A stretch of 64,000 nt of DNA from Saprospira sp. CCB-QB6 (GTDB taxonomy: Bacteria > Bacteroidota > Bacteroidia > Chitinophagales > Saprospiraceae), in contig NZ_CP116808.1 in assembly GCF_028464065.1 (NCBI RefSeq), forward strand, positions 1,677,001 to 1,741,000, given 5' to 3'. Shown piece after piece: positions 2,419 through 16,656 of the stretch (positions within the stretch are counted from its first letter, which is position 1; each line of letters begins with the position of its first letter). The notes beneath the pieces were generated by a model that was not told where the DNA came from, did no database searches, and saw only the letters and a list, made by a program, of their open reading frames with translations. The position numbers and the translations under genes were made by a program.

Positions 2419-2450
2419 ATTGATTTAAAATTAAAAAAGTGCTATACTTG
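2419..2450 (+). promoter_or_regulatory. Bacteroidota-type promoter of the RiPP precursor gene
   Basis: ATTG (2419-2422), a 20-nt spacer and TATACTTG (2443-2450) fit the Bacteroidota TTTG-N19-21-TAnnTTTG pattern. The predicted start of transcription falls about 20 nt before the precursor ATG at 2480. The rest of the 2167-2479 gap is AT-rich, with nothing else recognised. Confidence 0.6.
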
Positions 2451-2479: not shown

Positions 2480-2662
2480 ATGAAGAATTCAAATTTAAAG
2501 AAGGCTTTAAAGACTCTTAAACAAAACCAAGACATCGAAATCATCAATCCTGAGACAGTGAAAGGTGGTGCTGAAGGTTGTGGCACAAAAACAGTTAATT
2601 GTGGCACAAAGACTACCTGCATCATCAAATTTAGAGATGTCGTATTAGAGCCCAAAGGATAG
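2480..2662 (+). CDS. Putative RiPP precursor peptide with double-glycine leader
   Basis: A 60-aa peptide. Residues 1-30 are Lys/Asn/Ile-rich and end in TVKGG, like the double-glycine leaders cut by C39 peptidases. The predicted 30-aa core has three cysteines (34, 41, 47) inside a repeated CGTKT motif (34-38 and 41-45), then a hydrophobic/basic tail. It resembles the GG-leader precursors that sit next to SPASM radical-SAM enzymes in Bacteroidota, though I cannot name the exact family. It has its own promoter just upstream and an intrinsic terminator at 2860-2902. Downstream lie a maturase and a C39 exporter, which supports the call. A thioether-bridged product is inference. The start is the only in-frame ATG after the promoter. 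Confidence 0.75.
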   Translation: MKNSNLKKALKTLKQNQDIEIINPETVKGGAEGCGTKTVNCGTKTTCIIKFRDVVLEPKG

Positions 2663-2859
2663 TCTATCTTTAGATTCTAATGCTGAACTCATGAACAAGC
2701 AACTATCCTTATACTTGAGGGCGAATTTTCGTTTCTTTTCGGGTATTCTTCCCCAGGATAGTCTACTATTATCCTAGACAAGGATGCCTATATAAAGGGT
2801 TAAAATTGTCGTTCTAATGTAATTAAGGATATTGCTCTAAGTGAATTCATTTAACTAAG

Positions 2860-2902
2860 TGTGGTAAGACTTACAAATGTGAGTCTTGCCACATACTTTT
2901 TT
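2860..2902 (+). terminator. Intrinsic terminator or attenuator after the precursor gene
   Basis: A 12-bp stem (TGTGGTAAGACT, 2860-2871, with AGTCTTGCCACA, 2882-2893, one G-T pair) is followed by TACTTTTTTATT. It lies about 200 nt after the precursor stop and 20 nt before the next start codon. It should favour precursor mRNA over the downstream genes. Confidence 0.7.
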
Positions 2903-2922
2903 ATTAAACTTTGTTGTCCACC

Positions 2923-5301
2923 ATGGTTAAAAATGTACTTCTACACCTATTTGCTTCTATTTTAATTATCCCTATGAGTATAGGGCAAATCATTTCTGGA
3001 CAATTATTCACAGAAGAAGCAGAGCCTATGAACTTTGCCCTAGTTTACCTTTATCAGGTAGATGGAGCGCTAATCAATGGTGGGTTTCCAGATGAGAATG
3101 GGCAGTTTAAGTATGAAGATTTGGCTCAGGGCTATTATAAAATAGCTATAGATGGTGGGGTAGGGTTTAAGAGTTATGAGTTTGACTCTTTATTGGTGAG
3201 TGATAGTATTTCCGTAAATCTTGGTTCATTGACGATAGAATATGCGGAAGGAGTAATTGTTGAGGCTAAAAAAGTAAAGCCTGTTTTAGAGATTGATGTA
3301 GACAAAACTATTTTGAATGTAGCGGATAATTCTTTGTCTACTTTTCCGTCTACAGCGCAAGTTTTAGCTTTAGCTCCTGAGGTGAGTGTACAAAATGGGG
3401 CCATCTCGGTTTTGGGTAAAGGAAACGTTCGTATTCTCATCAATGGCAAGCGGACCAATTTAAAGTTAGAGAACATTCAGCCCAACACTATTTTGGCCAT
3501 AGAAATCATCAGTAATCCCTCTGCCAAATATGATGCAGAGGTGGATGCAGTAATCAATATCTTATTGAAGAAGGGGACTTTAGAGGGAGTACAGGCTACA
3601 GTTTACAGTAAATACACACAGGGAATATATCCGAGAACTGATCTTGGTGCCTCCATTAATTATAACAAGAATAAGTTTAGTGCTAATCTTAATGCGGGCT
3701 ATGACTACAATAAAATTCAATCAGTAACAAAAGGCCAGAGAGCCTTTGAAGTTAGTTTACCCTATTATTATTCTAATACGTATTTACAGCAAGACCAATG
3801 CGCGAATAACTTCTATGTCAATGCTGATTTGAGTTGGAATTTTGGGCCACAGCATCAATTGACTCTATCGGGGGAATATTCTACCAACAATGCTCCTGCG
3901 GAGCAAAATGTAACTAATCAAAGTGATTATTTTGGTGGAGATCCAACTGTTTCTTTAAGTACTGCCGATTCCTTCTTACAGAATCAAACCCATACTCAAA
4001 GTCAGTCTAATAACTACCAGGCCCAGCTCAATTACCATAATCAATTCAGCGAACATTGGGGGATGACCGCTGCTATAAACTATATGCAGCTTCAACCATT
4101 GAGTTTTAGTCAGTATAATTTTGATTTTATCAATCAACTTGATCCTGTCCAAAGTTTTAATTTCAGTTATCAGTTGGCCGATACGAGTCGGGCTAAACTG
4201 CTCATTAGTCAGCTAGATTTTGATTGGAATAAAAATGCGCATAGCATTTCCTTTGGGGCCAAGCGTAGTTACATTAACAGTTACTATAGTCTCTTTTTTA
4301 AGAACAACGACATCAATTTTACGGGAGAAGACAACCAATTTGAGTACGACCAAAGTATTTATGCTAGTTATATAAGCTGGAAATCCTCTTGGAAGCGATG
4401 GCAGTGGAACTTAGGTATGCGGGCAGAGTATAGTGATTTGGCAGGAGCCGACCGTTTGGGGCTGGCTAGCCAACAAAAGCGTTTTGATTTATTTCCTTCT
4501 GCCTCTGTTCTTTGGTTCAAATCCAATAAGCATATTTTTCGATTTGCTTATAGTAAGTCGATTCAGCGGACAGGTTTCTTTGACCGCAGTCCTTATCGAT
4601 ATTACACCGGTTTGTACACTCAATTTCTGGGGAATCCCAATCTTCGTCCACAAATTACACATAGCGGAAGTTTGAGTTATATTCTGAATGGCCAGTTTAT
4701 GTTTACCCTTTTTCAGAATGAAATGATTGACTATATCAATCAAATTTCTGAGCGAGAAGGCAGTTTAGAGACCTTTCAAAACATCAACTTTCAGAATTCA
4801 ACCTTTGGGCTTTCTATTGGGGGGCAACTGCCGCTAAAGAAATATGGGCAGCTTAGCTTTAAGGTTAGTCCAACAGGAATTTATAGCCGCGGGATGGCCC
4901 AGGGAGAAAACTTCAAGACCTTATCCTTTAACACCAACTGTTATTTGATGCATAGTTTTAGTCTTTGGAACTGGATGCAGATGGATATTGTGGCTAATTA
5001 TAGTTCTCCTATGGCAATAGCCATTTATGAGAGCAAGCATCTTTTTTATATGGACATCAATCTGCGCAAGCGTTTTTTGCAAGACAAACTATCTGTATCG
5101 CTTTATCTAGCTGATATTTTTGGGACCAATGTAGAGCGCAATAGCGTTGATTTTTATCAGCAGAAAATGCAGGTTAAGCATTATCGAGATGTACAGACCC
5201 TGACACTTTCGTTGCAGTATAACTTTAATTATGGCCGTGAACGAGATATTTTTTCCGTAGAAACTATGGATGAAAATACATTAGATCGGGTAATAAAATA
5301 A
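2923..5301 (+). CDS. TonB-dependent-receptor-like outer-membrane beta-barrel protein
   Basis: Predicted outer-membrane protein of 792 aa. The start at the ATG (2923) is preferred over the upstream TTG (2911) because it gives a clean signal peptide ending near SIGQ. After it comes a carboxypeptidase-regulatory-like beta-sandwich (about residues 22-110), then a plug-like segment with the typical GKGNVRILINGK and AEIISNPSAKYDAEVDAVINI sort of signatures (about 150-215). The rest is a long beta-barrel rich in aromatic/Asn strands. No clear TonB box is visible. It resembles the Bacteroidota 'outer membrane beta-barrel family' proteins. Placed between precursor and maturase, it may carry the mature peptide across the outer membrane, or be its receptor; that role is inference. 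Confidence 0.8.
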   Translation: MVKNVLLHLFASILIIPMSIGQIISGQLFTEEAEPMNFALVYLYQVDGALINGGFPDENGQFKYEDLAQGYYKIAIDGGVGFKSYEFDSLLVSDSISVNLGSLTIEYAEGVIVEAKKVKPVLEIDVDKTILNVADNSLSTFPSTAQVLALAPEVSVQNGAISVLGKGNVRILINGKRTNLKLENIQPNTILAIEIISNPSAKYDAEVDAVINILLKKGTLEGVQATVYSKYTQGIYPRTDLGASINYNKNKFSANLNAGYDYNKIQSVTKGQRAFEVSLPYYYSNTYLQQDQCANNFYVNADLSWNFGPQHQLTLSGEYSTNNAPAEQNVTNQSDYFGGDPTVSLSTADSFLQNQTHTQSQSNNYQAQLNYHNQFSEHWGMTAAINYMQLQPLSFSQYNFDFINQLDPVQSFNFSYQLADTSRAKLLISQLDFDWNKNAHSISFGAKRSYINSYYSLFFKNNDINFTGEDNQFEYDQSIYASYISWKSSWKRWQWNLGMRAEYSDLAGADRLGLASQQKRFDLFPSASVLWFKSNKHIFRFAYSKSIQRTGFFDRSPYRYYTGLYTQFLGNPNLRPQITHSGSLSYILNGQFMFTLFQNEMIDYINQISEREGSLETFQNINFQNSTFGLSIGGQLPLKKYGQLSFKVSPTGIYSRGMAQGENFKTLSFNTNCYLMHSFSLWNWMQMDIVANYSSPMAIAIYESKHLFYMDINLRKRFLQDKLSVSLYLADIFGTNVERNSVDFYQQKMQVKHYRDVQTLTLSLQYNFNYGRERDIFSVETMDENTLDRVIK

Positions 5302-5320
5302 GTTGTGCTAAAATTTTCTT

Positions 5321-5470
5321 GCGGTTTGCAGGTGGCGAAGCCACCGCAGGCTGAGGGATGGGCAGCAGGGCCGCCAAAGGCGGCCGACCGAGGTGCTAGA
5401 AGCACCGAAGGGCCGAGCGATCAGCGAGCTGCGAGACAGCCCGACCCGACTGTAAGGAGGGGCAGCCCCT
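5321..5470. repeat. GC-rich mosaic repeat (copy 2, 'CAGCCCC' end type)
   Basis: Contains GGCGAAGCC, CTGAGGGATGG, a GGCCGCCAAAGGCGGCC hairpin, GGGCCGAGCG, CGAGCTGCGAGACAGCCCGACCCGAC and a GGGGCAGCCCC end followed by an A-run. It lies inside the RiPP cluster, between the outer-membrane gene and the maturase, so it may separate transcripts. Confidence 0.8.
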
Positions 5471-5546
5471 AAAAAATAAGAGCCTCACTTACATAAGCAG
5501 TTGTAATTCCTAATTTATTCCTTCATCTTAATTTACATTATACGAT

Positions 5547-6917
5547 ATGAGCTATTATAAAATTTCCAAATACCTTGTTGTCACGGATGTGTTAGAAACG
5601 GCTTCAGAAGCACCTTTAAGAATAATTTATGCTACGAGAACGGGAAAAGCTATTTCGATTAAGGAAGAAATTTATCAGCATTTATTGAAAGGTGATTTTG
5701 GGGCGATTCCTTCTAATTATCTATCCTTTTTGATTCAAAGTATGGTTATTGTTCGTTCTAGTGAAGATGAGCTAGCGAGTATTTTGGCTGAGAATGACTT
5801 GGGTATAGAGAGCGGTACGACACTTTCTTATACTATACAACCTGGAGCGAACTGTCAGTTGGGTTGTGATTATTGTGGACAGGTACATAGTGACAAAATG
5901 ATGTCTGAGGCGCATCAGGAAAAAATGCTTGCGCGAATTTTGTCGAAGGTAGAGTCTAGGCATCAGGAGTTAGCGATTAGTTGGTATGGGGGGGAGCCGA
6001 TTATGGCCATGAAGCAGATTCGCAGTTTGACAGCAAGATTAAAAGATATTGCCAAAGAGCACAACTTGCATTATAGTGCGAGTATGGTGACCAATGGAGT
6101 TGGTTTAAAAGAGCGCGTTTTTGTAGAATTAGCAAGAGATTTTGATGTTACTTATTTTCAGATTACGTTAGATGGGACGGCGGAAGAGCATGATCAGCGA
6201 AGATTTACGAAGAAAGGGGGAAAAACTTTTGATGTAATCATAAAAAACATCTTAGCGGTTACGAGTCATCCGATTTATAAGGAAAAAAACTGTAATATTA
6301 CGATTCGATGTAATATTAATCATGCGAATAAAGACAATATAAAATCTTTAGTTTGGGAATTAGCAGCATTAGAGCTACAGGATAAAATAACCTTTGATTT
6401 TCAGCCAGTTACTGACTGGGGCGACAACAACGCATCTGCTGGATCGATGACGAAAGAAGAGTATGCGGAGTATGAGATTGAGCGGATTATTGAAGCCATT
6501 CAGTTAGGGTTTAAGTATGCGCAATTTATTCCGGCGAGGAATAAAAAAGTTTGCATGGTAGTAGATGAAAAATCGGAAGTATTTGATGCTTATGGTAACA
6601 TTTACTCTTGCTGGGAGCTTCCGTATACTCCTTTATATGAGAATACAATTTACCAGTATGGCCATTTAGATAAAGCCGAGGAAGAATTCCAGCGAGATCC
6701 TATGAGAGATTGGAACAAAAACATTCCTCATTCAGATGCTTGGTGTAAGAGTTGTAAATTTTTGCCTGTATGTGGTGGTGGTTGTCCTCAGAAGTGGTTA
6801 GAAAAGACAGCTGCTTGTCCATCTTTCAAATTTAACATTGAAGATCGTTTAGTCTTAGAATATCTGTACAAGCAGAATAACAATCTGAGTGAGTTACTCT
6901 CAGAGGCTGTGGATTAG
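5547..6917 (+). CDS. Radical SAM/SPASM peptide maturase
   Basis: A 456-aa radical SAM enzyme. Residues 1-90 look like the N-terminal peptide-handling region of peptide maturases. The radical-SAM cluster motif is C103-x3-C107-x2-C110. WYGGEP (146-151) is the SAM-binding GGE-type motif. The C-terminal SPASM region has Cys336, Cys355, C400-x2-C403-x5-C409-x3-C413 and Cys424, which would hold two auxiliary Fe-S clusters. The family installs carbon-sulfur or carbon-carbon crosslinks in ribosomal peptides. The natural substrate here is the 60-aa Cys-containing peptide at 2480; thioether chemistry is inferred from the cysteines. It is followed 60 nt later by the C39 exporter. Confidence 0.9.
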   Translation: MSYYKISKYLVVTDVLETASEAPLRIIYATRTGKAISIKEEIYQHLLKGDFGAIPSNYLSFLIQSMVIVRSSEDELASILAENDLGIESGTTLSYTIQPGANCQLGCDYCGQVHSDKMMSEAHQEKMLARILSKVESRHQELAISWYGGEPIMAMKQIRSLTARLKDIAKEHNLHYSASMVTNGVGLKERVFVELARDFDVTYFQITLDGTAEEHDQRRFTKKGGKTFDVIIKNILAVTSHPIYKEKNCNITIRCNINHANKDNIKSLVWELAALELQDKITFDFQPVTDWGDNNASAGSMTKEEYAEYEIERIIEAIQLGFKYAQFIPARNKKVCMVVDEKSEVFDAYGNIYSCWELPYTPLYENTIYQYGHLDKAEEEFQRDPMRDWNKNIPHSDAWCKSCKFLPVCGGGCPQKWLEKTAACPSFKFNIEDRLVLEYLYKQNNNLSELLSEAVD

Positions 6918-6977
6918 AGTTAAGTCATTCTGCAGGCTAATCATTTGCTATCTTTCCATTCGTTAGTGCGTTTAATT

Positions 6978-9182
6978 ATGTTTAACAAATTTCCTTTTTA
7001 CCCTCAATTTGATGAGATGGACTGTGGTCCTAGTTGTCTCAGAATGATTGCAAGATACTTTGGGAAAACATATAGTATAGATTATTTAAGAGAGCAATCT
7101 TATATTACAAAAGATGGAGTTAGCTTAAGGGGGATTAGCCAGGCGGCAGAAACTATTGGTATGGAGGCTCTTTCTGTAAAACTTAGCCTAGAAACGCTCA
7201 TAGCAGAAAAGCTAACGCCAGTCATTTTGCATTGGAATCAAAATCACTTTGTTGTTTTATACAAAATAAAGCGAAGTTATTCGGGCAAATATATTTTTAA
7301 AGTTGCAGATCCTAGGTATGGTTTAATTTCCTTGCAACAAGAAGTTTTTGAAGAAAACTGGAAAAAAGGAGCGGATAAGGGGATTGCGCTTATCCTCAAT
7401 CCAACAGATAAATTTTTTAGTCAATCATTAGAGGTTGTAGAACAAAAGAAAGCCTCTGTATGGGGGCTAGCTCGTTATGTTTCACCTTATAAAAAAGACA
7501 TTGCTCAATTATTTGTTGGCCTAATTGGCGGGAGTTTAATCACACTTACTCTTCCATTTATGACACAACTATTGGTAGACCGTGGAGTTGCTTTCAAGAG
7601 CTTAAACATCATCTACTTAATCTTAATTGGGCAATTTTTTTTATTCCTAGGGGCTTCCTTTATAGAAATCATCAAAAACTGGATTTTATTATACATTGGG
7701 AGTAGAACGAACATTTACATTCTCTCTAATTTTTTGTCTAAGCTAATGAGACTTCCTCTTAAGTTTTTTGACAGCAAACGAATTGGAGATTTCATTCAAC
7801 GAATGGAAGATCATAATAGGATTGAGCATTTTCTTACTTCTCAGAGTTTACTTACCCTCTTTTCTATTATCAACCTACTTGTATTCTCTTTGATTTTGGC
7901 CTATTATAATTTGAGCATTATTGCCATTTATTTTGGGTTCACGACGCTAGCTATTCTATGGATGTTTCTTTTTCATGCCAAACGTAGATTACTAGATTTT
8001 ACCAACTTTGCTTATCGAGCGGAGAATCAAGATTCAATTTATGAGTTGTTGCATGGCATGCAAGAAATTAAGCTCAATAATCTACAAGATTATAAAAGAG
8101 AACAATGGGAAAACATCCAAATTAAGCTCTTTAATAACAACATCTCTATATTAGCTACAGACCAATACCAGCTTACTGGCTACCAATTTATTAACCAATT
8201 TAAAAATATCTTGGTTACGTTTATTGCTGCCCAACAAGTCGTACTTGGAAATATTTCTTTGGGAGCGATGCTGAGTATTATTTACATTGTGGGGCAAATG
8301 AACAGCCCTATAGAGCAACTGATTACTTTTTTTAGATCACTACAAGATACTCAACTCAGCCTTGAACGCTTAGAGGAAATTCATAGAAAACCTGATGAAG
8401 AACAGGATAATCAGGTTCATGAAATCCCCCAAACACCTCATAAAGAGGGAATTCAAATTACTGAACTCACCTTCAGATATGAAGGTCCACAATCTCCTGC
8501 TGTTTTACACCAACTCAGTTGCTTTATTCCTCAAAATCAAACAACTGCCATTGTTGGTGCTAGTGGTAGCGGTAAAACTAGCCTAATTAAGCTGCTCTTA
8601 AAATTTCAAGAGGCTCCAGATAATAGCATTCTTGTTAATGGCTTAGATTTAAATAAATTATCGCCTCAAAAATGGCGGGGCAACTGCGGTGCAGTGATGC
8701 AAGAAGGTTTTATTTTTTCTGATACTATTGCCCGAAATATAGCCACTAATGATATTCAGTTTGACCCAGACCGATTATCACATGCTATAAAAATGGCTAA
8801 TCTAGAAGGCTATATTCAAAAACAGCCTTTAGGTATAAATACCAGTATTGGTCAAAATGGAAATGGGCTAAGTGGTGGAGAAAAACAAAGAATACTCATT
8901 GCTCGAGCTATTTATAAAGACCCTCAATATCTTTTCTTCGACGAAGCTACCTCCGCTTTAGATGCCGCTAATGAAAAGATTATTATGACGAACCTCAATC
9001 ACTTTTTTACGAATAAAACAGTAGTTGTGGTGGCCCATAGACTGAGCACCGTAAAAAATGCACACCAAATTATTGTGTTAGACCAAGGAGAAATTGTTGA
9101 AGTAGGCAACCATACAGAGCTAACTGCAAAAAAAGGAACCTACTTCCACTTAATTAAAAACCAATTAGAACTTGGTAATTAA
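6978..9182 (+). CDS. Peptidase-containing ABC exporter (C39 peptidase, bacteriocin-type)
   Basis: Inner-membrane transporter that removes a double-glycine leader and exports the core peptide. Using the ATG at 6978 (734 aa) puts the C39 peptidase at the N-terminus, with Gln10, catalytic Cys16 in DCGPSC, His90 in NHFVVLY and Asp111 in ADPRYG. A multi-helix ABC transmembrane region spans about 155-440. The ATPase has Walker A GASGSGKT, signature LSGGEKQRI, and Walker B LFFDEATSALD. A TTG-initiated version starting at 6945 would add 11 residues not typical of the family. The next gene's ATG abuts its stop codon, so the two are translationally linked. Confidence 0.93.
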   Translation: MFNKFPFYPQFDEMDCGPSCLRMIARYFGKTYSIDYLREQSYITKDGVSLRGISQAAETIGMEALSVKLSLETLIAEKLTPVILHWNQNHFVVLYKIKRSYSGKYIFKVADPRYGLISLQQEVFEENWKKGADKGIALILNPTDKFFSQSLEVVEQKKASVWGLARYVSPYKKDIAQLFVGLIGGSLITLTLPFMTQLLVDRGVAFKSLNIIYLILIGQFFLFLGASFIEIIKNWILLYIGSRTNIYILSNFLSKLMRLPLKFFDSKRIGDFIQRMEDHNRIEHFLTSQSLLTLFSIINLLVFSLILAYYNLSIIAIYFGFTTLAILWMFLFHAKRRLLDFTNFAYRAENQDSIYELLHGMQEIKLNNLQDYKREQWENIQIKLFNNNISILATDQYQLTGYQFINQFKNILVTFIAAQQVVLGNISLGAMLSIIYIVGQMNSPIEQLITFFRSLQDTQLSLERLEEIHRKPDEEQDNQVHEIPQTPHKEGIQITELTFRYEGPQSPAVLHQLSCFIPQNQTTAIVGASGSGKTSLIKLLLKFQEAPDNSILVNGLDLNKLSPQKWRGNCGAVMQEGFIFSDTIARNIATNDIQFDPDRLSHAIKMANLEGYIQKQPLGINTSIGQNGNGLSGGEKQRILIARAIYKDPQYLFFDEATSALDAANEKIIMTNLNHFFTNKTVVVVAHRLSTVKNAHQIIVLDQGEIVEVGNHTELTAKKGTYFHLIKNQLELGN

Positions 9183-9602
9183 ATGATACATAGTACAGAT
9201 AGCCTACAAGATAAGTTACCTAAACCCCATTGGATACTAAGGTATAGCTTCTTATTTATATTTTTAATTATTGGGTTAATAAGCACAACACTATACTTGA
9301 TTAAAGTCCCCAATTATTTACAAGTAGAATTATTCGCAAAAAAAGATAACGACCAGTTGATCGCTGTTTGTCCACCCCATAAATGGCTAGAGGAACAAGA
9401 AAGCCTCTCTATTATCTTAGAAAATGGCCAGCAGTACCTGTTCCAAATTAAAAAGTTTACCCATGAACAACATACTACTCATCTAACCCTCTCTAGCGAG
9501 CAACTAGATGCTCAACGCTTTCTAAAACAAGAGTATATCTCTATTGGGAAGGTGGCACTACCTAGCCAACCTCTTATATTCACTCTATTTCCTAACAATT
9601 AA
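9183..9602 (+). CDS. Small membrane protein resembling a truncated HlyD-type adaptor
   Basis: A 139-aa protein whose ATG starts at the base after the exporter stop. A short cytoplasmic N-terminus (KPHWILRYS) precedes one transmembrane helix (about 20-42) and then a KVPNYLQVE stretch. This arrangement matches the N-terminus of HlyD-family adaptors in Bacteroidota. The remaining 90 residues are beta-rich. The lipoyl and coiled-coil hairpin parts of a normal adaptor (about 400 aa) are absent. It may be a minimal exporter partner; the family assignment is inference from layout and the N-terminal pattern. Confidence 0.55.
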   Translation: MIHSTDSLQDKLPKPHWILRYSFLFIFLIIGLISTTLYLIKVPNYLQVELFAKKDNDQLIAVCPPHKWLEEQESLSIILENGQQYLFQIKKFTHEQHTTHLTLSSEQLDAQRFLKQEYISIGKVALPSQPLIFTLFPNN

Positions 9603-9613
9603 GCTATTTCACC

Positions 9614-10633
9614 ATGATTGCTTCACCCATTGACCTCATCGCTGAACTTAAATATTACCTAGATACTCATCATAATATCGAAAAAGATTCTCGCTATGCT
9701 GGCAACAAACATGTTTTTGAAGTTTGTATCGAAGAACTTGAAGATCGCCTTAGTATTGATGAAAAAATGATCCTTATGGATCTACATCTTTGCTATACAA
9801 ATTCTCTAGCAGCTGCAAGAGAAAATGACTTAGGAACAGCTCAATTTTGGCTGAATAATGCCAAGCAAATCCCCCCTTTCGAGCAACCAATTCTCCAAAT
9901 GCTCGTCGACCTGAATCACTTGCCCGCCCTCGCTTTTTACTTATACAAAGACCAACAGTTTGATGAAGCCATTGACTTACTCCAAAAAACTATAACTATT
10001 TCTGGCCTTTTCCAAGAAGAATCTGGCATCGACTATATCGTCTGGGGACAAATGGAAGATTATATAAATATTTTTAGAGTCCACTGTACCAATAAAAACA
10101 CAGAACAAGCACTCCTTTACGCTTCCGCAATTCTTAAAGCAATTGCCTGTCTTGAACTTAGCCCTGGTTTCCTAGAAGACGTTTCTCTCGATGTTCTTAA
10201 AAAAGCAGAAATCAATTTTATTAACTATGCCACTAATGACATTATCAAAAGACTCCTGTTCTCTACAGAACTACCACTAAAAACTATTCTCGAAAAGGTG
10301 TTTTTCCCCCTCATCTACACTGAAAATGCCAAAGAATGCCCCAATGAAGGCTATATCGAGACCCTAAAAGTGCTTGAAGCTATCGCTAATGCTAATTTTG
10401 ATCAAGCTAAGGAGTTGTTGCAATTTGACCCCCTACAGTTTCACAAACAAGCTCACTTACTTCAATTTACACTGATTGAGTTTCTAATTCCCTTCCTGAA
10501 AAATCAAGCCGATGCTGAAATGAAAAATGCCTTGGCCCAACAAATCAACGATTATTATCTGCAAGAGCTGATGATTCAACCAATGATTCTGCAAAAATAC
10601 TCTGGCTTAGACTATACTCCTTCTATAGCCTAA
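9614..10633 (+). CDS. Helical-repeat (TPR-like) protein of the RiPP cluster
   Basis: A 339-aa soluble protein with no signal peptide and no recognised family. It is mostly alpha-helical, and stretches such as ALAFYLYKDQQFDEAIDLLQ look like tetratricopeptide repeats. It begins 11 nt after the small membrane protein, so it belongs to the same operon. A scaffold, regulator or immunity role is possible; nothing decides between them. Its last base is the first base of a 265-bp direct repeat. Its 3' end overlaps the truncated TIGR02757 copy by 11 bp tail to tail, which suggests the two genes were convergent neighbours before the insertion. Confidence 0.8.
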   Translation: MIASPIDLIAELKYYLDTHHNIEKDSRYAGNKHVFEVCIEELEDRLSIDEKMILMDLHLCYTNSLAAARENDLGTAQFWLNNAKQIPPFEQPILQMLVDLNHLPALAFYLYKDQQFDEAIDLLQKTITISGLFQEESGIDYIVWGQMEDYINIFRVHCTNKNTEQALLYASAILKAIACLELSPGFLEDVSLDVLKKAEINFINYATNDIIKRLLFSTELPLKTILEKVFFPLIYTENAKECPNEGYIETLKVLEAIANANFDQAKELLQFDPLQFHKQAHLLQFTLIEFLIPFLKNQADAEMKNALAQQINDYYLQELMIQPMILQKYSGLDYTPSIA

Positions 10634-10897
10634 ACTCCCCCTCTACCCCCATCCCAAATAAAGCAAAATCATACTTTGCAGGATCTTCAGCACAAAGCGC
10701 TCTAGCAGCTTGCCCCAACTCCAAACAAGCCGCCCAATCGTCTTTTTCTCGCTGCAAAAGCCCCAAGGCCCTCGCCTGCCGACCGACATGCACATCTAAT
10801 GGAAGCAGTAGTTGCGCAGGCGAAATTTGCCGCCAAAGCCCAAAATCTACCCCCGCCTCATCTCGGCGAACCATCCAACGCAAAAACATATTTAAAC
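10623..10897 (-). pseudogene. 3' fragment of a TIGR02757-family gene (left duplicate)
   Basis: Encodes the last ~88 residues of the protein whose full copy is at 15886-16656. The two copies are identical at protein level until the final few residues (EGEFRL here, EGELL there). The 5' part is missing: homology stops at 10897, where the island begins. The stop codon used here overlaps the 3' end of the upstream gene tail to tail, so this is probably the original 3' end of the native gene. Confidence 0.9.
10633..10897. repeat. 265-bp direct repeat, left copy
   Basis: Matches 15893-16157 with a constant offset of 5260 bp and one mismatch (10659 T versus 15919 C). It bounds the insertion at 10898-15892. 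It could be a long target duplication, or gene 3'-end DNA brought by the inserted element. Confidence 0.93.
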
Positions 10898-10969
10898 AGG
10901 CGGTTTAGATGGTATTTTTTACGTAAAACGGCCTTAGTATAAATTGTTTTCTAATTGCATCTGTAGTAA

Positions 10970-11320
10970 ATTATCCTTATTTTTGTAGTTGTAATACAAA
11001 CAATTATAAAGAAGAAGTATATAGTTCCTACACTTAAAATAGCTCCTACAGAAAGCGATTATGATTTTTTAGAGGTTGATGTCTATGATGTTGAGGGAAA
11101 ATTATCCAAAATTGAATTTGATAAACTTTCCCTATTGCATAGAAGTTTCATACTGGGGGCAGCAGGATTTGGGAAGTCTCGCTTACTTCAAGATATTTAT
11201 GAATATTTCTGTAATAAAAATCAATCAACTGTTATACTTGATTTAAAGAAGGTTAAAGTATAGTATAAGTGAATATATCCAATCCTCAGAGACTTTAAAG
11301 AAAATTTCTGACGATTTTGA
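10970..11320 (+). pseudogene. Fragment of a P-loop NTPase (STAND/NACHT-like), cut by an IS
   Basis: An open frame from 10970 to a TAG at 11261-11263 encodes about 97 residues, including FILGAAGFGKSRLLQD, a good Walker A (GxxxxGKS). No ATG precedes the conserved part, so its start is lost or altered. A shifted frame from about 11268 to 11320 (SEYIQSSETLKKISDD) looks like a further piece of the same gene, joined by a frameshift or deletion. The IS3 element begins at once after it. The motif style is that of signal-transduction NTPases found in defence loci; the exact family is not certain. Confidence 0.55.
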
Positions 11321-11384
11321 CTAATCACCCCCCAAAAAAGCCAACCGTTTAGTAAGCTAACAGAAAAAGTGTAACTTAGGACTT

Positions 11385-11660
11385 ATGAAAAGAAGAAGAT
11401 TCACATCAAAGTTTAAGACAAAAGTTGTATTGGAAGCCCTAAAAGAGCAGTCGAGTTTGGCAGAGCTAGGGCAAAAGTACGAGCTTTCCCCACAGCAAAT
11501 AAGCAATTGGAAGTCCGCTTTTTTGGCTGGAGCCGAAGAAGTATTTAGCCTTGGCTGAGAAAAGAAGAAGGCAGAAGCGACAGAAAAAGAGGCAAATTTG
11601 CTCCGTACGATAGGAGAACTAAAAGTGGAGGTAGATTTTTTAAAAAAAGCCTTGGAGTAA
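11385..11660 (+). pseudogene. IS3 orfA (helix-turn-helix transposase subunit) with nonsense codon
   Basis: Encodes a typical IS3 OrfA: an Arg/Lys-rich start, then a helix-turn-helix (LAELGQKYELSPQQISNWK) and a leucine-zipper-like tail. A TGA at 11556-11558 interrupts it after EVFSLG. The same frame then runs on through ELKVEVDFLKKALE to TAA at 11658-11660, so one substitution broke the gene. Confidence 0.8.
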
Positions 11661-11662
11661 AA

Positions 11663-12507
11663 AGCTCAAAAGAGAAGCGGGAAAAAGTAGACCCCAACCA
11701 CCCAATCCTGAGCATTCGCAAGCAATGTAAAATACTGGGGATCAATCGTTCAGTAGTATATTACAAGCCAGTTCCACAAACTGCATTGAACTTGATGCAA
11801 TTGATGGATGAGCACTATTTGCAACATCCAGACAAGGAGCAAAACGAATGCATACTTAGTTGACAAAAGATTTGGGTTACCAAGTTAATATAAAGCGAAT
11901 AGAACGCTTATATTATAAAATAATGGGGTTGCGGTCTATTTTGCCTGGTCCTCATACTTCAAGGCCAAATAAAGGAGCTGGTCACCAAATATATCCTTAC
12001 CTATTGAGAGGATTAAAAGTTGCTCGATCCAATCAGGTTTGGGCGATAGATACCACCTATACACCAATGCCTCAGGGGTTTATGTATTTGGTAGCTATAA
12101 TAGATATTTATAGTCGCTATGTAGTTTCATGGTCTATTTCGAATACAATGACGAGCGAATGGTGCCGATCTGTTTTGGAAGAAGCTATTGAGAAACATGG
12201 GCAGCCAGAAATTTTGAATACAGATCAAGGTAGTCAATTTACGGCCAGTGTATTTACAGAACATGTTATAGATCAAGCGATTAAACTGAGTATGGACGGC
12301 AAAGGTCACCGTATAGACAACGTTTTTATTGAACGTTTGTGGAGGTCTGTAAAATATGAAGACATCTATATTAAGGAATATAAAAATGGTTGGGAGCTGC
12401 AAGTAGGAGTTAAAGCTTATTTTCAATTTTATAATAAAGAAAGACGACATCAAGGAATCAATGATGAGCTTCCAGAGGAGCGATATTTTTCTTCAAAACT
12501 AGCTTGA
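11663..12507 (+). pseudogene. IS3 orfB (DDE integrase-type transposase), frameshifted
   Basis: The N-terminal part (VDPNHPILSIRKQCKILGIN) is in one frame up to about 11835. The rest continues in another frame from GAKRMHT, where a TAG at 11857-11859 follows. From 11860 a 215-aa open frame carries the rve catalytic core: Asp in WAIDTTY, Asp in LNTDQGSQF and Glu in DNVFIERLWRS. With one frameshift and one nonsense codon, full-length transposase cannot be made without two recoding events. Confidence 0.85.
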
Positions 12508-12552
12508 TTTTGGTCTGGCTGATAGGGGGCGGTATACACTAAAAATTGGAAC

Positions 12553-13848
12553 ATGGATTTAATTACAAAAAAGTTTTTTAAGCTGTTTTGGCAGAGTGAA
12601 GAATGTAGAACAATATTCTTACAACATCGAACAGAGCTTTTAGAAAAAGAGGTTGATTTGTTAATTACAACAAAGCACCATTATATGCCTCGTATTTTTA
12701 TTACAAACATTAACCGTGTTAGGGAAGATACAGAATTACTAATATTCAAACTGGAAGAAGAAGAACTGGAAGTAAATCATTTTTTTGAAGAATTTGCAAA
12801 AAACTATCTGGTAGAAGAGCAGATAAAAACTTATCTACAATCAAAGTTTCCAAAAGGGATGCAACTAATTCCAGCTTTTAACTTGGAAACCCCTAATAAT
12901 GCACTATTTCAAATTGCTCAAAAAATTTTTGAGGATTGGCAAAATGAAGTGCCTTTGGGAATGTCGATAACTAAGCATCTCATCAATACTTATCTATTGC
13001 CAACGAATATTCAATTTGAAAATTTTGAAGATGCTTTTAACTACTTTGAAAATATGGTTATTGAGGAAGTGAAATCAATCAATCTTAAAAATGCTTTAGA
13101 TTTAAGGGAAGTAGTAGATACTATTGTTAAGATGTATAACTATAAGTTCAAACGCAACCTATATGATGCGAACCTAAAGTTTGGGGCTTCTTTATTACCT
13201 GCTAATAAGAAAGAATACAAAAAGAGATTAGCGTTATTAGACGCCTTATATGATTTTGAGGTATTGTCTGGAGGACATTATGAAGGACACTATGAATGCG
13301 TTGAATGTAAGAGCTTCAAATGTGTAAGCACAACCGATATAAAGCCAAGCAAAAATGAATTAAAGTGTCCTAATTGTGGGAGCAAAATGCTGCACATCGT
13401 TCCTTATCGAATTTATGATAAAGTTCATGAAAAAATAGTGCAAAATGATGGCTTATTAGCTGGAGCTATTGAATATCTCCTTGATTTAAAGGGGCAAAAC
13501 TATACTAAAAATGGATATATAGAAGGAGCAAAAGATGTGGAATTAGATTTTATAATTAAATGTGAGGCAGATATTTACGTTACTGAAGTGTTAGAAATCA
13601 AAATGTTCAAAAACAAGGATTTTGATGCACTAAAAACCAACTTATTAGGAGCAATCGCTAAGATAAAAAAAGCTAAAGATAAATTGGTCAAATTAGATGA
13701 AGGTTGGAAAGAAATACTTTTTTCAGTAATTACTAATGTAAGAGATGAAGAAGTATTGAAAACTGCAAAAAAGGAAGCCAAAAGCGACCTTGAAGAATAT
13801 AAAATTAAGTTTTTTACTCCTATGCAGTTTTTAGAAAACCATGATTAA
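12553..13848 (+). CDS. Zinc-ribbon plus PD-(D/E)XK nuclease-like protein
   Basis: A 431-aa protein not recognised as a named family. The N-terminal half (1-240) is helical. A zinc ribbon follows (C249-x2-C252 and C272-x2-C275), then a restriction-endonuclease-like core with Asp332 (ELDFI) and Glu348-x-Lys350 (VLEIKMF), the D...ExK pattern of PD-(D/E)XK nucleases. Its ATG lies about 15 nt beyond the right end of the IS3 element, so the original N-terminus may have been removed and the first residues may be a new start. The upstream NTPase fragment could be its former partner or its own 5' part. A DNA-cleaving defence effector is the favoured guess. Confidence 0.65.
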   Translation: MDLITKKFFKLFWQSEECRTIFLQHRTELLEKEVDLLITTKHHYMPRIFITNINRVREDTELLIFKLEEEELEVNHFFEEFAKNYLVEEQIKTYLQSKFPKGMQLIPAFNLETPNNALFQIAQKIFEDWQNEVPLGMSITKHLINTYLLPTNIQFENFEDAFNYFENMVIEEVKSINLKNALDLREVVDTIVKMYNYKFKRNLYDANLKFGASLLPANKKEYKKRLALLDALYDFEVLSGGHYEGHYECVECKSFKCVSTTDIKPSKNELKCPNCGSKMLHIVPYRIYDKVHEKIVQNDGLLAGAIEYLLDLKGQNYTKNGYIEGAKDVELDFIIKCEADIYVTEVLEIKMFKNKDFDALKTNLLGAIAKIKKAKDKLVKLDEGWKEILFSVITNVRDEEVLKTAKKEAKSDLEEYKIKFFTPMQFLENHD

Positions 13849-13886
13849 AGAATACATCTAAAATTACCCTTTTAAATAATTTGAAA

Positions 13887-14549
13887 ATGAAACAACACAT
13901 TTTTTTCTTAAAAAAAGTTCCCTACTGGCAAGAAGTTATTATTCAAGAGATAGGAACAACAAAAGAGCAAATAGCTCAATTTTCAAATGCTTTTTTAGAA
14001 ATACTTGCCTCAAGTCAAGCTGGGTTATGCCATACTAATTCTGCATTATTGTATTGTTTCTTACAAAAATATAGAGTTCCTTGTAAATGGAGAGTTGGTT
14101 TTTTTGAGACTTTTGAAGGATTCCCAAAATCCTGTAAAGTTTGGTCTCATCAAACAAATACTAATATTAGTTGGCATTCATGGTTAGAGATTGATAAGCA
14201 GATTTTGGATTTAACAATCATTAACCAAAAATTCCATTATGGCTTTCCTCCTATTGTCTTTGATAACATCATAAGTAGTGAATTAGTATTAAATGAACAG
14301 AGAGAAATAGTATCACCTAATGGGGAGATTATTGCAAAATATCACTATAAATGTCCCCCTCAGCATTTATCTGATAAGTCAAAATCTACTCCAAGTCTTA
14401 TCAAAAACCAATTATCACCTATAGTTCAACTAAAAACAGCGATGGGAGACAAATGGGAAATAGATTTTAATAGTTTCATAAAGAGGCGGTTAGATGTAGA
14501 TTTAGAAGAAGGCTGGTCAGAGAAATTTAATAGTTATGTTTGTGAGTAA
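13887..14549 (+). CDS. Transglutaminase-fold (papain-like) cysteine enzyme, uncharacterised
   Basis: A 220-aa protein, using the ATG at 13887 rather than the TTG at 13881. A possible catalytic triad is visible: Cys in AGLCHTNSALL (about 48), His in SWHSWLEID (about 98) and Asp in ILDLT. That order and spacing match transglutaminase-like or lasso-B2-like cysteine proteases, whose His is followed by a Trp and acidic residue. No signal peptide is seen. It follows the nuclease-like gene by 38 nt and precedes a truncated ORF, so the three may be one operon. Its substrate is unknown; protease activity within a defence module is inference. Confidence 0.55.
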   Translation: MKQHIFFLKKVPYWQEVIIQEIGTTKEQIAQFSNAFLEILASSQAGLCHTNSALLYCFLQKYRVPCKWRVGFFETFEGFPKSCKVWSHQTNTNISWHSWLEIDKQILDLTIINQKFHYGFPPIVFDNIISSELVLNEQREIVSPNGEIIAKYHYKCPPQHLSDKSKSTPSLIKNQLSPIVQLKTAMGDKWEIDFNSFIKRRLDVDLEEGWSEKFNSYVCE

Positions 14550-14570
14550 CTCTTAGTTAAAAATTAGGGA

Positions 14571-14768
14571 ATGATATACATAGATTGGTTAAAGACTATT
14601 GAGCCAAAAGCAGAAAAAGCTATCCGAAGTCTCTTTGAAAAAGCACAAAAGAATCAACATCATAAATCTGACTTGCTTTTGACCATAATAAATGGACACT
14701 ATAAAGATTATTGTGATTCTAAAATGCCATGGCCTTGTTGCATAAATAAACCCCTTCAAATCAGCTAA
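14571..14768 (+). pseudogene. Small ORF truncated by an IS insertion
   Basis: The native part ends near DSKMP at 14730; the last dozen codons (to 14768) read into the left end of the IS5-type element. It is helical and charged (PKAEKAIRSLFEKAQ) and matches no family I know. No continuation is recognisable between the IS right end (15818) and the direct repeat (15893). Confidence 0.6.
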
Positions 14769-14860
14769 TTACAAAAAACCTTTCGAATTAGGCATAAAAA
14801 AAGGGACAAGCCCCGTAGATTTAAGTTTTTTCGACGAACAATAAAACCTCGAGCTGTCCC

Positions 14861-15262
14861 ATGACAAAAGTAGAAAAAACCTTACAGAACTACGCACTAA
14901 TCAACAGATTTTATACCGCCCAAGGTAAGTTTCTTTTTAATGTTTGGTTTCCGCCTTTGGTAAGCAAAAACCTCATCGCTAAGCGCTCAAAACGTGGCAG
15001 ATCTAAAACAATTTCTGATGAATTTATTCGCTATTTATTCCGTTTAAAAGTGCTTTTTTCATTTGGGTATCGACAGTTAGAAGGTATTCTAAAATGCGTC
15101 ATTTCCAAATATAATTTGGATGTCAGGCCGATATCTTTTAGCCAAATATGTCGTAGAGTCAAGAACCTAAAACTGAATATTAAGCCTAAAAAAACGGATA
15201 AAGAAAGATCTATAGCGATAGATAGTACAGGACTAAAACCAAAGGACAGGGAGAATGGTTAA
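14861..15262 (+). CDS. IS5-type transposase, N-terminal part
   Basis: 133 aa holding the DNA-binding N-terminus and the first catalytic aspartate (SIAIDSTGLK). Its TAA stop shares bases with the next frame's ATG (TAATG at 15260-15264). Family transposases continue GxGEW without a break after the first Asp, and that GQGEWL is encoded one frame back, so the two halves were once, or still are, joined by a -1 shift near CCAAAGG (about 15239-15245). Confidence 0.85.
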   Translation: MTKVEKTLQNYALINRFYTAQGKFLFNVWFPPLVSKNLIAKRSKRGRSKTISDEFIRYLFRLKVLFSFGYRQLEGILKCVISKYNLDVRPISFSQICRRVKNLKLNIKPKKTDKERSIAIDSTGLKPKDRENG

Positions 15263-15795
15263 TGAAAAAATATTTAGAAAAACAGCGTTCTAGCTGGATT
15301 AAAGTACATTTAGTAGTAGATGATAAAACAGGAGAAATCTTATCCGTAGAGATTACCACAGAGCGAAAAACCGATGCCTCTCAGCTTCCAAAGCTGATGA
15401 AAAAAATGAAATCCTTGAATATTACCCATGTTTACGCAGACGGAGCCTATGACCAAATAAAATGTCGAGAAGCAATTTGTGCGGCTGGGGCGATTCCATT
15501 GATTCCCCCACGTAAAAATGCTCGCCTAAAAAAAGGAAAAAATGGAGAGCTAGTCGATAGTTATCGCAACGATGATATTTTATATATCTGGGAGTTGGGA
15601 TCGGCTGCTTGGAAACAAGATTTAGGCTATCATCGTCAAAATTTAAGCGAAACTGCAATGATGCGACTCAAGCACTTTTTCTCTGAACGGCTCTCTTCGC
15701 TCAGCTTTAAGATGCAGAAACAAGAAGTGCTGATGCGTATTCAAATTTTAAATGAGCTTAATGTTATCAAGTTAGAAGTTGCTACTAATCAGTAA
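15262..15795 (+). CDS. IS5-type transposase, C-terminal part
   Basis: 177 aa with the second catalytic aspartate (VYADGAYD) and the glutamate (LSETAMMRLK) of the DDE transposase fold. It lies in the -1 frame relative to the N-terminal part. Whether the element is active depends on whether that junction is programmed frameshifting or a 1-nt deletion. The internal ATG at 15262, overlapping the upstream stop, could also allow coupled reinitiation. Confidence 0.85.
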   Translation: MKKYLEKQRSSWIKVHLVVDDKTGEILSVEITTERKTDASQLPKLMKKMKSLNITHVYADGAYDQIKCREAICAAGAIPLIPPRKNARLKKGKNGELVDSYRNDDILYIWELGSAAWKQDLGYHRQNLSETAMMRLKHFFSERLSSLSFKMQKQEVLMRIQILNELNVIKLEVATNQ

Positions 15796-15885
15796 ATTAT
15801 GATTTATGCAACAAGGCCCTTTCTGACTCATCGTTAATTGTTTGATGTTTTTGTAATTTATTTCCCTCCCAAAATACAAAACTTC

Positions 15886-16656
15886 CTACAATAACTCCCC
15901 CTCTACCCCCATCCCAAACAAAGCAAAATCATACTTTGCAGGATCTTCAGCACAAAGCGCTCTAGCAGCTTGCCCCAACTCCAAACAAGCCGCCCAATCG
16001 TCTTTTTCTCGCTGCAAAAGCCCCAAGGCCCTCGCCTGCCGACCGACATGCACATCTAATGGAAGCAGTAGTTGCGCAGGCGAAATTTGCCGCCAAAGCC
16101 CAAAATCTACCCCCGCCTCATCTCGGCGAACCATCCAACGCAAAAACATATTTAAACGCTTACAAGCCGATTTCCGCGCAGGAGTAGCAATGTGTTTCCG
16201 AGTCCGCTGCGGGGCCTCTTCCAAGGCAAAAAAGTCTTGCTCAAAGCCGAGCAAAGCCGGCCCAACATGCTCATCTTCTGGCCCAAGATGCCGCGCGAAT
16301 GCCTGCTCCAAACTATCCTCTTTTTGGTAATATTGCTGTAACCAATGCAAAAAATAAAGGGCATCCGTGGGCTGAAATGTCCGATGCTTAAAGTCCAAAA
16401 ATGCCTTACGGTCCGCCTCCTCATGGTTCACAATAAAATCATGGGGCGCATAATCCATCAACTCCAACAAGCGCTTTCCACTCTTAATGATGCTGGCCCG
16501 ACGCCCCCAAGCCAAAACAGCCACCCAAAAGCCAATGATCTCCCGATCAGCCGCCTTACTCAAACTATGCGGCAAACTAATCGGATCATCTTTGATAAAA
16601 TTTGGTCGGTTGTATTGCGCCACTTTTTCATCCAAATAGGCCTTAATATCTTTCAT
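15886..16656 (-). CDS. TIGR02757 (DUF2400) family protein
   Basis: A 256-aa soluble protein of the conserved Bacteroidota/proteobacterial TIGR02757 family, whose function is unknown. Characteristic stretches are visible: DREIIGFWVAVLAWGRR, HRTFQPTDALYFLHWLQ, KRLNMFLRWMVRRD, DVHVGRQARALGL and the C-terminal FALFGMG. The last 265 bp of the gene are duplicated at 10633-10897. The stop used here (15886-15888) lies in island DNA, just past the repeat. The coding sequence therefore survived the insertion with only its last few residues changed. Confidence 0.92.
   Translation of the reverse strand: MKDIKAYLDEKVAQYNRPNFIKDDPISLPHSLSKAADREIIGFWVAVLAWGRRASIIKSGKRLLELMDYAPHDFIVNHEEADRKAFLDFKHRTFQPTDALYFLHWLQQYYQKEDSLEQAFARHLGPEDEHVGPALLGFEQDFFALEEAPQRTRKHIATPARKSACKRLNMFLRWMVRRDEAGVDFGLWRQISPAQLLLPLDVHVGRQARALGLLQREKDDWAACLELGQAARALCAEDPAKYDFALFGMGVEGELL
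15893..16157. repeat. 265-bp direct repeat, right copy
   Basis: Partner of 10633-10897. It ends inside the TIGR02757 gene, where the left copy diverges (TTTAAAC then A on the left, G here). Confidence 0.93.

What the first reader, a model, noticed from the sequence alone, without database searches (positions are those of the whole stretch)
2480..10633. Putative RiPP cluster: CGTKT-repeat GG precursor, SPASM radical-SAM enzyme, C39 exporter, outer-membrane barrel, minimal adaptor and TPR-like protein
Seen: a 60-aa peptide ending its leader in VKGG with three Cys in two CGTKT repeats, a maturase with CxxxCxxC and a complete SPASM Cys set, and an exporter with an N-terminal C39 triad, all on one strand. 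Known: GG leaders are cut by C39 exporters, and SPASM enzymes crosslink Cys-rich or aromatic cores. Inferred: a thioether- or C-C-crosslinked product about 30 aa long. I cannot match the precursor's repeat motif to a described family, so the product could be new.
Basis: partly seen in the sequence, partly recalled or inferred. Interest (0 to 1): 0.88.

Follow-up and report, generated by a model that had tools for sequence, protein, structure and literature searches.

The report
Cysteine-rich modified-peptide cluster in gliding bacterium
A six-gene set that very probably makes, trims and secretes a small peptide with enzyme-made crosslinks belongs to a widespread but unnamed group of such systems, and its outer-membrane barrel survives alone in a sister genome, which offers a way to ask how these peptides cross the outer membrane.

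Summary
Window 2480-10633 encodes, on one strand, a 60-aa GG-leader precursor (two CGTKT repeats, three core Cys), a PF14905 outer-membrane barrel, a radical SAM enzyme with a full SPASM Cys set, a C39 peptidase-ABC exporter, a 139-aa membrane-anchored mini-adaptor and a helical TPR-like protein. The set recurs in two Aureispira loci (rSAM 68%, exporter 69%), with conserved leaders and divergent cores. In a tree of 77 maturases the window's enzyme lies in a supported 18-row clade; 9 of the 18 loci have a precursor with a C-[GRN]-T-[KYFM] core motif (also Massilia, Janthinobacterium, Crocinitomix, Chryseobacterium). So the 'unmatched' repeat has kin, but no NCBIfam or Pfam model covers it and every named maturase model is missed by a wide margin. 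Cys-to-Thr/Ser thioethers, as CteB-like enzymes make, are the likeliest product; chemistry is untested. Two further points: the exporter's partner is a shortened HlyD relative without a predicted coiled-coil hairpin, and one of five other same-genus genomes keeps an intact barrel alone at the same site, which leaves open whether the barrel exports or receives the peptide. A new variant of a known kind.

The parts
2420..2448 (+). promoter-like site TTGATT-17-TATACT upstream of the precursor
   Evidence: 9 of 12 matches; the scanned region holds 35 such sites against 25.4 (sd 4.8) in shuffles, so weak evidence
2480..2662 (+). precursor peptide, 60 aa: leader 1-30 ending VKGG, core 31-60 with C34, C41, C47 in CGTKTVNCGTKTTC
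   Evidence: relatives; motif statistics
2859..2894 (+). intrinsic-terminator-like hairpin (16 pairs, T tail) between precursor and barrel: precursor is probably its own transcription unit
2923..5301 (+). outer-membrane beta-barrel (PF14905) with signal peptide by my reading and sub-threshold CarboxypepD_reg and Plug matches; ORF listed from TTG 2911
   Evidence: PF14905 8.3e-57, 193.5 bits, cut-off 27; orthologue alone in G696
5547..6917 (+). radical SAM/SPASM peptide maturase, 456 aa
6978..9182 (+). C39 peptidase-ABC exporter (PCAT type); ORF listed from TTG 6945
9183..9602 (+). mini-adaptor, 139 aa: one TM helix then a small beta domain, no coiled-coil hairpin predicted
9614..10633 (+). TPR-like alpha-solenoid protein, 339 aa, family shared with related maturase loci

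Best explanation
This is a RiPP (ribosomally made, enzyme-modified peptide) gene set. Shown by sequence: a GG-leader precursor in its own probable transcription unit, a SPASM radical SAM enzyme, a C39 exporter and three accessory proteins that recur together in relatives. Inferred: the enzyme binds the leader and joins Cys sulfur atoms of the core to nearby residues (most likely the Thr at +2 or +4 of each C-G-T-K-T unit) as thioethers of the CteB/ranthipeptide type; the TPR-like protein helps the enzyme or binds the peptide in the cytosol; the C39 domain cuts after VKGG and the ABC exporter, with the mini-adaptor, releases a peptide of about 30 residues into the periplasm; the barrel carries the product across the outer membrane, in one direction or the other. 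The product is more likely a weapon or signal between bacteria than a house-keeping part, because most of the set is missing from the other genomes of the genus and it is low in GC.
For: Aureispira L041 and L042 hold two GG precursors each, then barrel, rSAM, ABC, adaptor, TPR in the window's order; amino-acid identity rSAM 68%, ABC 69%, barrel 49-51%, adaptor 38%, TPR 38-39%; leader 25 of 30 identical to L041's second precursor while cores differ. Of 80 loci fetched with the maturase profile, 28 have a C39 exporter just downstream. Window enzyme in an 18-row clade, support 100/99. Motif C-[GRN]-T-[KYFM] in 12 of 40 precursors against a shuffled mean of 0.38, maximum 4 in 1000 shuffles (related rows counted apart). 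Around core Cys, +3 is bulky or Lys (50 of 109, expected 25.6) and +4 is T/S/N (50 of 105, expected 35.7). Best solved relative 5wgg, E 1.1e-16, which I recall as CteB; Cys-Thr gamma-thioethers of CteB are stated in PMC10352776. GC 0.355-0.385 in the six genes against 0.47-0.49 for two neighbouring stretches.
Against: No chemistry is shown: SPASM enzymes also form alpha-thioethers, C-C or C-O links or epimers (established knowledge). The enzyme falls far below the cut-off of every named maturase model among the 25 shown; only the generic SPASM domain model is met. The window core lacks the N-x-x-C signature common in relatives (32 of 111 Cys have N at -3, expected 13.5; none of the window's three). 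Half of the maturase clade's loci lack the CGT-type motif. The promoter scan is weak. Maturase and precursor were not found in the 5 other genus genomes.
Confidence: 0.85

Rival explanations
1. The enzyme makes another SPASM product (C-C or C-O cyclophane, alpha-thioether sactipeptide, or epimerised residues) rather than non-alpha thioethers.
For: Cyclophane and sactipeptide relatives also match, if lower: DynA 77.9 bits, YhhB 75 bits, SkfB structure 6efn E 2.8e-6. Precursors of a more distant relative, L145, pair Cys with Trp (CWGFGG).
Against: The best four NCBIfam models are rSAM_vs_C_rich, Clo7bot, Cys-every-fifth CefB and geopeptide, the first and third named for Cys-rich targets, and PapB ranthipeptide (100.5 bits) outranks the cyclophane models. 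The window core has no Trp or Tyr, one Phe and three Cys.
Confidence: 0.3
2. The barrel is not the exit port but an uptake receptor or self-protection protein for the mature peptide, so the peptide works as a shared good (for example a metal carrier) or a bacteriocin that enters by that barrel.
For: G696 keeps an intact barrel of 791 aa (95% amino-acid identity; codons from 45 on dN/dS 0.10) alone at the dnaG site; the precursor, the maturase (E<=0.001) and a C39-bearing exporter were not found in that genome. The barrel has a plug-like, TonB-box-like stretch (Plug E 0.12, below cut-off; TonB-box reading is mine).
Against: Barrel presence tracks the C39 exporter: 23 of 28 loci with C39, 4 of 52 without (Fisher p 1.8e-11, not corrected for kinship), which also fits export; PMC8939145 (passages read) predicts that TonB-dependent-receptor-related proteins mediate export of graspetides. 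Loss in G696 could be recent, and dN/dS includes the window's own branch.
Confidence: 0.45
3. An unmodified Cys-containing bacteriocin is exported and the maturase acts on something else.
For: GG leaders and C39 exporters also serve unmodified peptides (bacteroidetocins, as described in PMC10352776 sections 13 and 16).
Against: In the loci listed many candidate precursors lie beside the maturase, and the core motif follows the maturase clade (9 of 18 loci inside; 0 of the 11 GG precursors used from tree rows outside).
Confidence: 0.06
4. The cluster is a decayed remnant in this genome.
For: Patchy distribution; a dispersed repeat now parts barrel from maturase (gap 245 bp here, 26 bp in Aureispira L041); transposase-like genes lie just downstream (my reading).
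Against: All six ORFs are open with motifs intact; rSAM and ABC keep 68-69% identity to Aureispira.
Confidence: 0.05

Closest known systems
Ranthipeptide / SCIFF-type maturases (CteB structure; PapB, Clo7bot, CefB models)
   Same: rSAM + seven-Cys SPASM; Cys-containing cores; 5wgg (CteB by recall) is the best solved relative
   Different: scores far under each curated cut-off; GG leader with a C39 exporter; core motif C-[GRN]-T-[KYFM] unlike the Cx3D or six-Cys patterns I recall
TIGR04463 rSAM_vs_C_rich maturases
   Same: best NCBIfam hit, 211.6 bits over residues 40-437
   Different: cut-off is 525 bits
Bacteroidales rSAM clusters BGC2 and BGC6-8 of PMC10352776 (sections 13 and 16 read)
   Same: rSAM, GG-type precursors, PCAT and OMP; BGC2 also has an MFP and a TPR-domain gene
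   Different: BGC6-8 add YcaO and had no MFP identified, whereas here a shortened HlyD relative follows the PCAT; their figure sequences were not compared
Graspetide (ATP-grasp) loci of PMC8939145 (passages read)
   Same: C39-ABC, SPASM enzyme, HlyD, PF14905 barrel and TPR proteins appear in its list of associated families
   Different: no ATP-grasp gene among the six genes here
Mycoplasma-named families Mbov_0121 exporter (NF045998) and MAG1140 (NF045999)
   Same: adaptor matches MAG1140 over residues 11-132 (E 2.6e-7; 30.8 bits, cut-off 35); exporter 238 bits to NF045998, cut-off 500
   Different: here in a two-membrane bacterium with rSAM and barrel; that these families are from mycoplasmas and work as a pair is my inference from their names

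Membership tests
SPASM-domain radical SAM peptide maturase | CxxxCxxC plus CX9-15GX4C-gap-CX2CX5CX3C-gap-C (pattern recalled) | tested here: met
   TIGR04085 51.3 over 27; invariant Cys
C39 peptidase exporter (PCAT) | N-terminal C39 domain with C/H/D, ABC membrane and ATPase domains | tested here: met
   structures 8vp3 and 4ry2 align from residue 8 or 7 to 738
RiPP gene cluster | conserved leader, variable core, nearby maturase, recurring pair in relatives | tested here: met
Ranthipeptide | non-alpha thioether in the product | not testable with these tools
   needs mass spectrometry and NMR
TIGR04463 / Clo7bot / CefB / PapB equivalogs | curated score cut-off | tested here: not met
   211.6 of 525; 173.5 of 600; 153.8 of 600; 100.5 of 340
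GG-Bacteroidales TIGR04149 precursors | model match of the precursor | tested here: not met
   window precursor has no such match at E<=1; 1 of 36 scanned precursors at E 0.025
CXXX-repeat system (TIGR04115) | maturase cut-off 350 bits | tested here: not met
   59.3 bits
HlyD-type membrane fusion protein | model match and coiled-coil hairpin | tested here: not met
   window protein: no HlyD hit in Pfam or NCBIfam, no hairpin in the model; 2 of 13 relatives match TIGR01843 and 1 of 13 PF13437, so a shortened relative
MAG1140 family (NF045999) | cut-off 35 bits | tested here: not met
   30.8 bits
PF14905 outer-membrane barrel | gathering score 27 | tested here: met
   193.5 bits
TPR protein | Pfam TPR match | tested here: inconclusive
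   window protein none at E<=0.01; TPR_2 and TPR_10 each match 1 of 19 members at 4e-4; helical solenoid model pLDDT 85.8, no PDB match at E<=0.001

The most novel reading that the evidence does not exclude
C39 exporter, hairpin-less mini-adaptor and PF14905 barrel form a peptide export route of Bacteroidota that works without TolC, and the same barrel doubles as the receptor, so that non-producers such as G696 keep it to take up or survive a neighbour's CGT-motif peptide.
Probability: 0.25. Interest if true: 0.75.

Novelty: new variant of a known kind. Interest (0 to 1): 0.48.

Why it matters
It defines a precursor type and maturase clade, shared between Bacteroidota and Oxalobacteraceae, that no NCBIfam or Pfam model matched, so crosslink chemistry can be tested with two genes. 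It also offers a concrete candidate for a question left open in print (PMC10352776: clusters with PCAT and OMP but no MFP identified): a shortened adaptor together with a tied barrel. The barrel-only sister genome is a natural control for telling export from uptake.

Tried and rejected
Rejected: a match to TIGR04149, CXXX-repeat or other Pfam/NCBIfam families for the precursor (weak hits only, the best among 36 precursors being E 5e-4 to the SbtA family TIGR04081, which 4 of 36 match and the window's does not). Rejected: that the TPR-like protein is unique to this genome. A direct order search found it in 1 of 99 genomes, the window's own, but the profile-led loci carry relatives: 19 of 28 C39 loci and 6 of 52 others. 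Of those 25 loci 18 seeded the profile; 7 did not (L050, a near-copy of L051; L061, L065, L073, L089; and two weak short hits, L088 and L102). Of the 13 adaptor loci 11 seeded their profile; L050 and L061 did not. Rejected: that weak precursor hits in sister genomes are precursors; the G699 hit lies in an ORF without GG or Cys and those of G696 and G697 overlap a long regulator-like ORF.

Led nowhere: genome-contig scan with the single maturase (none confirmed); papers: 20 of 73 listed, unrelated; 4 listed, none on point; 20 of 220 listed, unrelated; 0; PDB fold match for the adaptor (best E 4e-3, unrelated folds) and the TPR-like protein (best E 0.024, generic TPR folds including NprR and Rap proteins); sequence search of the barrel in the PDB (none). 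One script used a wrong barrel frame and was redone. A possible leader-binding domain at the maturase N terminus was not tested.

Rows dropped before counts: the 40 precursors leave out near-copies (L051, L064, L105, L106, further copies in L048, L050, L053, L055, L061, L145), the non-GG VIELEERLEM type (L068, L073, L077, L080, L085, L086, L093), other candidate types (for example L052, L056, L070, L074, L089, L090, L091, L095, L018) and the L021-L023 subfamily; loci where I saw no precursor (for example L043, L054, L060, L067, L079, L092) are not in it. Six of the 40 (L017, L098, L102, three of L145) have no maturase row in the tree. The tree leaves out L098, L102, L106 and L116 because the best maturase ORF was under 380 aa: 77 of 81 rows remain. 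In one search, keeping only the 62 of 80 loci with enough flank gives barrel in 18 of 20 with C39 and 4 of 42 without.

Full report
Observation. The six ORFs are as described, all on the + strand. Pfam and NCBIfam confirm barrel, radical SAM with SPASM, and C39-ABC exporter. The precursor itself matches nothing convincing. It sits behind a promoter-like site that is weak evidence and is followed by a 16-pair hairpin with a T tail at 2859-2894 (fold z -7.4, 0 of 200 shuffles as good), so it is probably transcribed on its own. Likely starts differ slightly from the listed ones: barrel ATG 2923, exporter ATG 6978 (my reading).

Organism and setting. The nearest clusters are from Aureispira (Saprospiraceae), and same-genus genome G617 has a contig of 4,345,237 bp, which I recall as the S. 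grandis Lewin chromosome length; the genus is therefore probably Saprospira (inference). The cluster lies beside a dnaG-like gene (115-2166, -; named from its sequence, not from a call). GC is 0.355-0.385 in the six genes against 0.489 in dnaG, 0.47 at 15.9-20.4 kb and 0.436 in the whole window.

Relatives. Own genome included, the maturase matches 9 of 198 genomes of the order at E<=1e-15, 17 of 395 of the phylum at 1e-30 and 3 of 150 of the family at 1e-50. Two Aureispira loci carry the whole set in the same order, with two precursors each. Identities to Aureispira: rSAM 68%, ABC 69%, barrel 49-51%, adaptor 38%, TPR-like 38-39%. The leader is 25 of 30 identical to L041's second precursor while the cores differ.

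Gene association. Of the 80 loci, 28 have a C39 exporter (E<1e-100, same strand, starting within 5 kb downstream). Of these 28, a barrel is near in 23, a TPR-like gene in 19 and a mini-adaptor in 13; of the 52 others the numbers are 4, 6 and 0. The TPR and adaptor profiles were built largely from these same loci (18 of 25 and 11 of 13 seeded them). Fisher p for barrel and C39 is 1.8e-11, not corrected for kinship. The five C39 loci without a near barrel are three contig-edge cases (L060, L061, L092) and two well-flanked ones (L057, L058). The four loci with barrel but no counted exporter are L067, L093, L102 (exporter in pieces) and L106. TPR-like relatives outside the seed alignment include Massilia L065 (8e-25) and Cupriavidus L089 (7.5e-17), so that family may belong with the maturase rather than with export.

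Maturase clade and core motif. In a tree of 77 maturases the window groups with Aureispira (100/99) inside an 18-row clade (100/99) that also holds four Oxalobacteraceae; long branches elsewhere in that tree are flagged. Among 40 GG precursors, C-[GRN]-T-[KYFM] occurs in 12, shuffled mean 0.38, maximum 4 in 1000; related rows count more than once. By locus it is in 9 of the 18 clade rows (window, L041, L042, L046, L048, L059, L065, L069, L105), absent from the precursors seen in L044, L045, L047, L049, L063, L071, L088 and L101, and in L043 I saw no precursor; it is in 0 of the 11 GG precursors used whose maturases lie in the tree outside the clade. Position +3 after Cys is bulky or Lys and +4 is T/S/N more often than shuffles give; N at -3 is common in relatives but not in the window.

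Chemistry. The best solved relative is 5wgg (E 1.1e-16), CteB by recall, whose Cys-Thr gamma-thioethers are stated in PMC10352776. NCBIfam ranks rSAM_vs_C_rich, Clo7bot and Cys-every-fifth maturases first, all well below cut-offs. With three Cys and five Thr within fourteen core residues, thioethers to Thr are the simplest guess. This is inference.

Export parts. In the mini-adaptor family (13 members) 8 show P-x-W-[IV]-x-[RH] at the start of the TM helix, the window among them, and the Pro is nearly invariant. The window model (pLDDT 80.4, pTM 0.57) is a TM helix plus a small beta domain with no hairpin. Two of 13 members match TIGR01843 HlyD and three match MAG1140. So this is a shortened HlyD relative; as modelled it could not reach a TolC-like duct (inference). 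PMC10352776 (sections 13 and 16 read) noted PCAT and OMP clusters with no MFP identified; PMC8939145 (passages read) lists PF14905 and TPR proteins among families near ATP-grasp loci and predicts an export role for TonB-dependent-receptor-related proteins. The architecture is thus not wholly new in print. I saw no paper on this precursor family in the listings, which searched by topic words, not by sequence.

Sister genomes. Of 6 genus genomes, dnaG is found in all; the maturase (E<=0.001) only in the window's own; the precursor only in its own, apart from stray hits at E 0.08-0.5 that are not precursors (one further stray lies in the own genome and was not examined). The exporter's listed matches elsewhere begin at residue 175 or later, so none covers the C39 domain, at 25-29% identity over the transporter or 38-39% over the ATPase part. 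G696 has an intact barrel, 791 aa, 95% amino-acid identity, at the same site without the rest of the set. Its first 45 codons differ more; from there dN/dS is 0.10 with dS 0.13, while dnaG has dS 0.26, so exchange between lineages is likely. G617 keeps the last 31 codons of the barrel. G697 has other genes there, among them a reverse-transcriptase-like ORF (my reading). G698 and G699 showed no barrel at E<=1e-10; their dnaG sites were not examined. The site is one of gain and loss, and the barrel was probably there before these losses. A barrel kept without its peptide fits a receptor or protection role, or a recent loss.

Verdict. A real RiPP system, probably of thioether type, in an unnamed clade: new variant of a known kind. 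The open questions are the crosslink and the direction in which the barrel works.

Noticed in passing
window 10633-10897 and 15886-16150: A direct repeat (99.6% identical over 258 aligned bases) bounds 10898-15885, which carries two transposase-like genes (11385-12507 and 15262-15795, my reading); in G617, G696 and G697 both copies map to one place.
   Followed up: partly
window 5320-5490: GC-rich dispersed repeat between barrel and maturase; nine further partial matches in the window at 74-96% identity and similar pieces in sister genomes.
   Followed up: partly
L144 (G697), between dnaG and the downstream gene: The same site holds a reverse-transcriptase-like 346-aa frame, a 300-aa frame and others in place of the peptide cluster (my reading); possibly a defence island.
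   Followed up: no
L068, L073, L077, L080, L085, L086, L093: A sister maturase clade in Flavobacteriia and Edaphocola has candidate precursors with a VIELEERLEM-like leader, no GG, and a Cys-rich tail, in up to six tandem copies (L085).
   Followed up: no
L017, L047, L049, L063, L094: Some related clusters add possible tailoring genes: PF11397 GlcNAc transferase and 2OG-Fe(II) oxygenase beside L017's cluster; large ORFs at similar places in the others were not scanned.
   Followed up: partly
L021, L022, L023: A more distant SPASM subfamily in the same order has an OMP-sized ORF, GG-F precursor, maturase and a C39-like exporter ORF in the same arrangement (the flanking ORFs read by eye).
   Followed up: partly
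window 9183-9602 and 6945-9182: Mini-adaptor and exporter resemble the families MAG1140 and Mbov_0121, whose names suggest mycoplasmas, so a C39 exporter with a short adaptor may occur in cells without an outer membrane.
   Followed up: no
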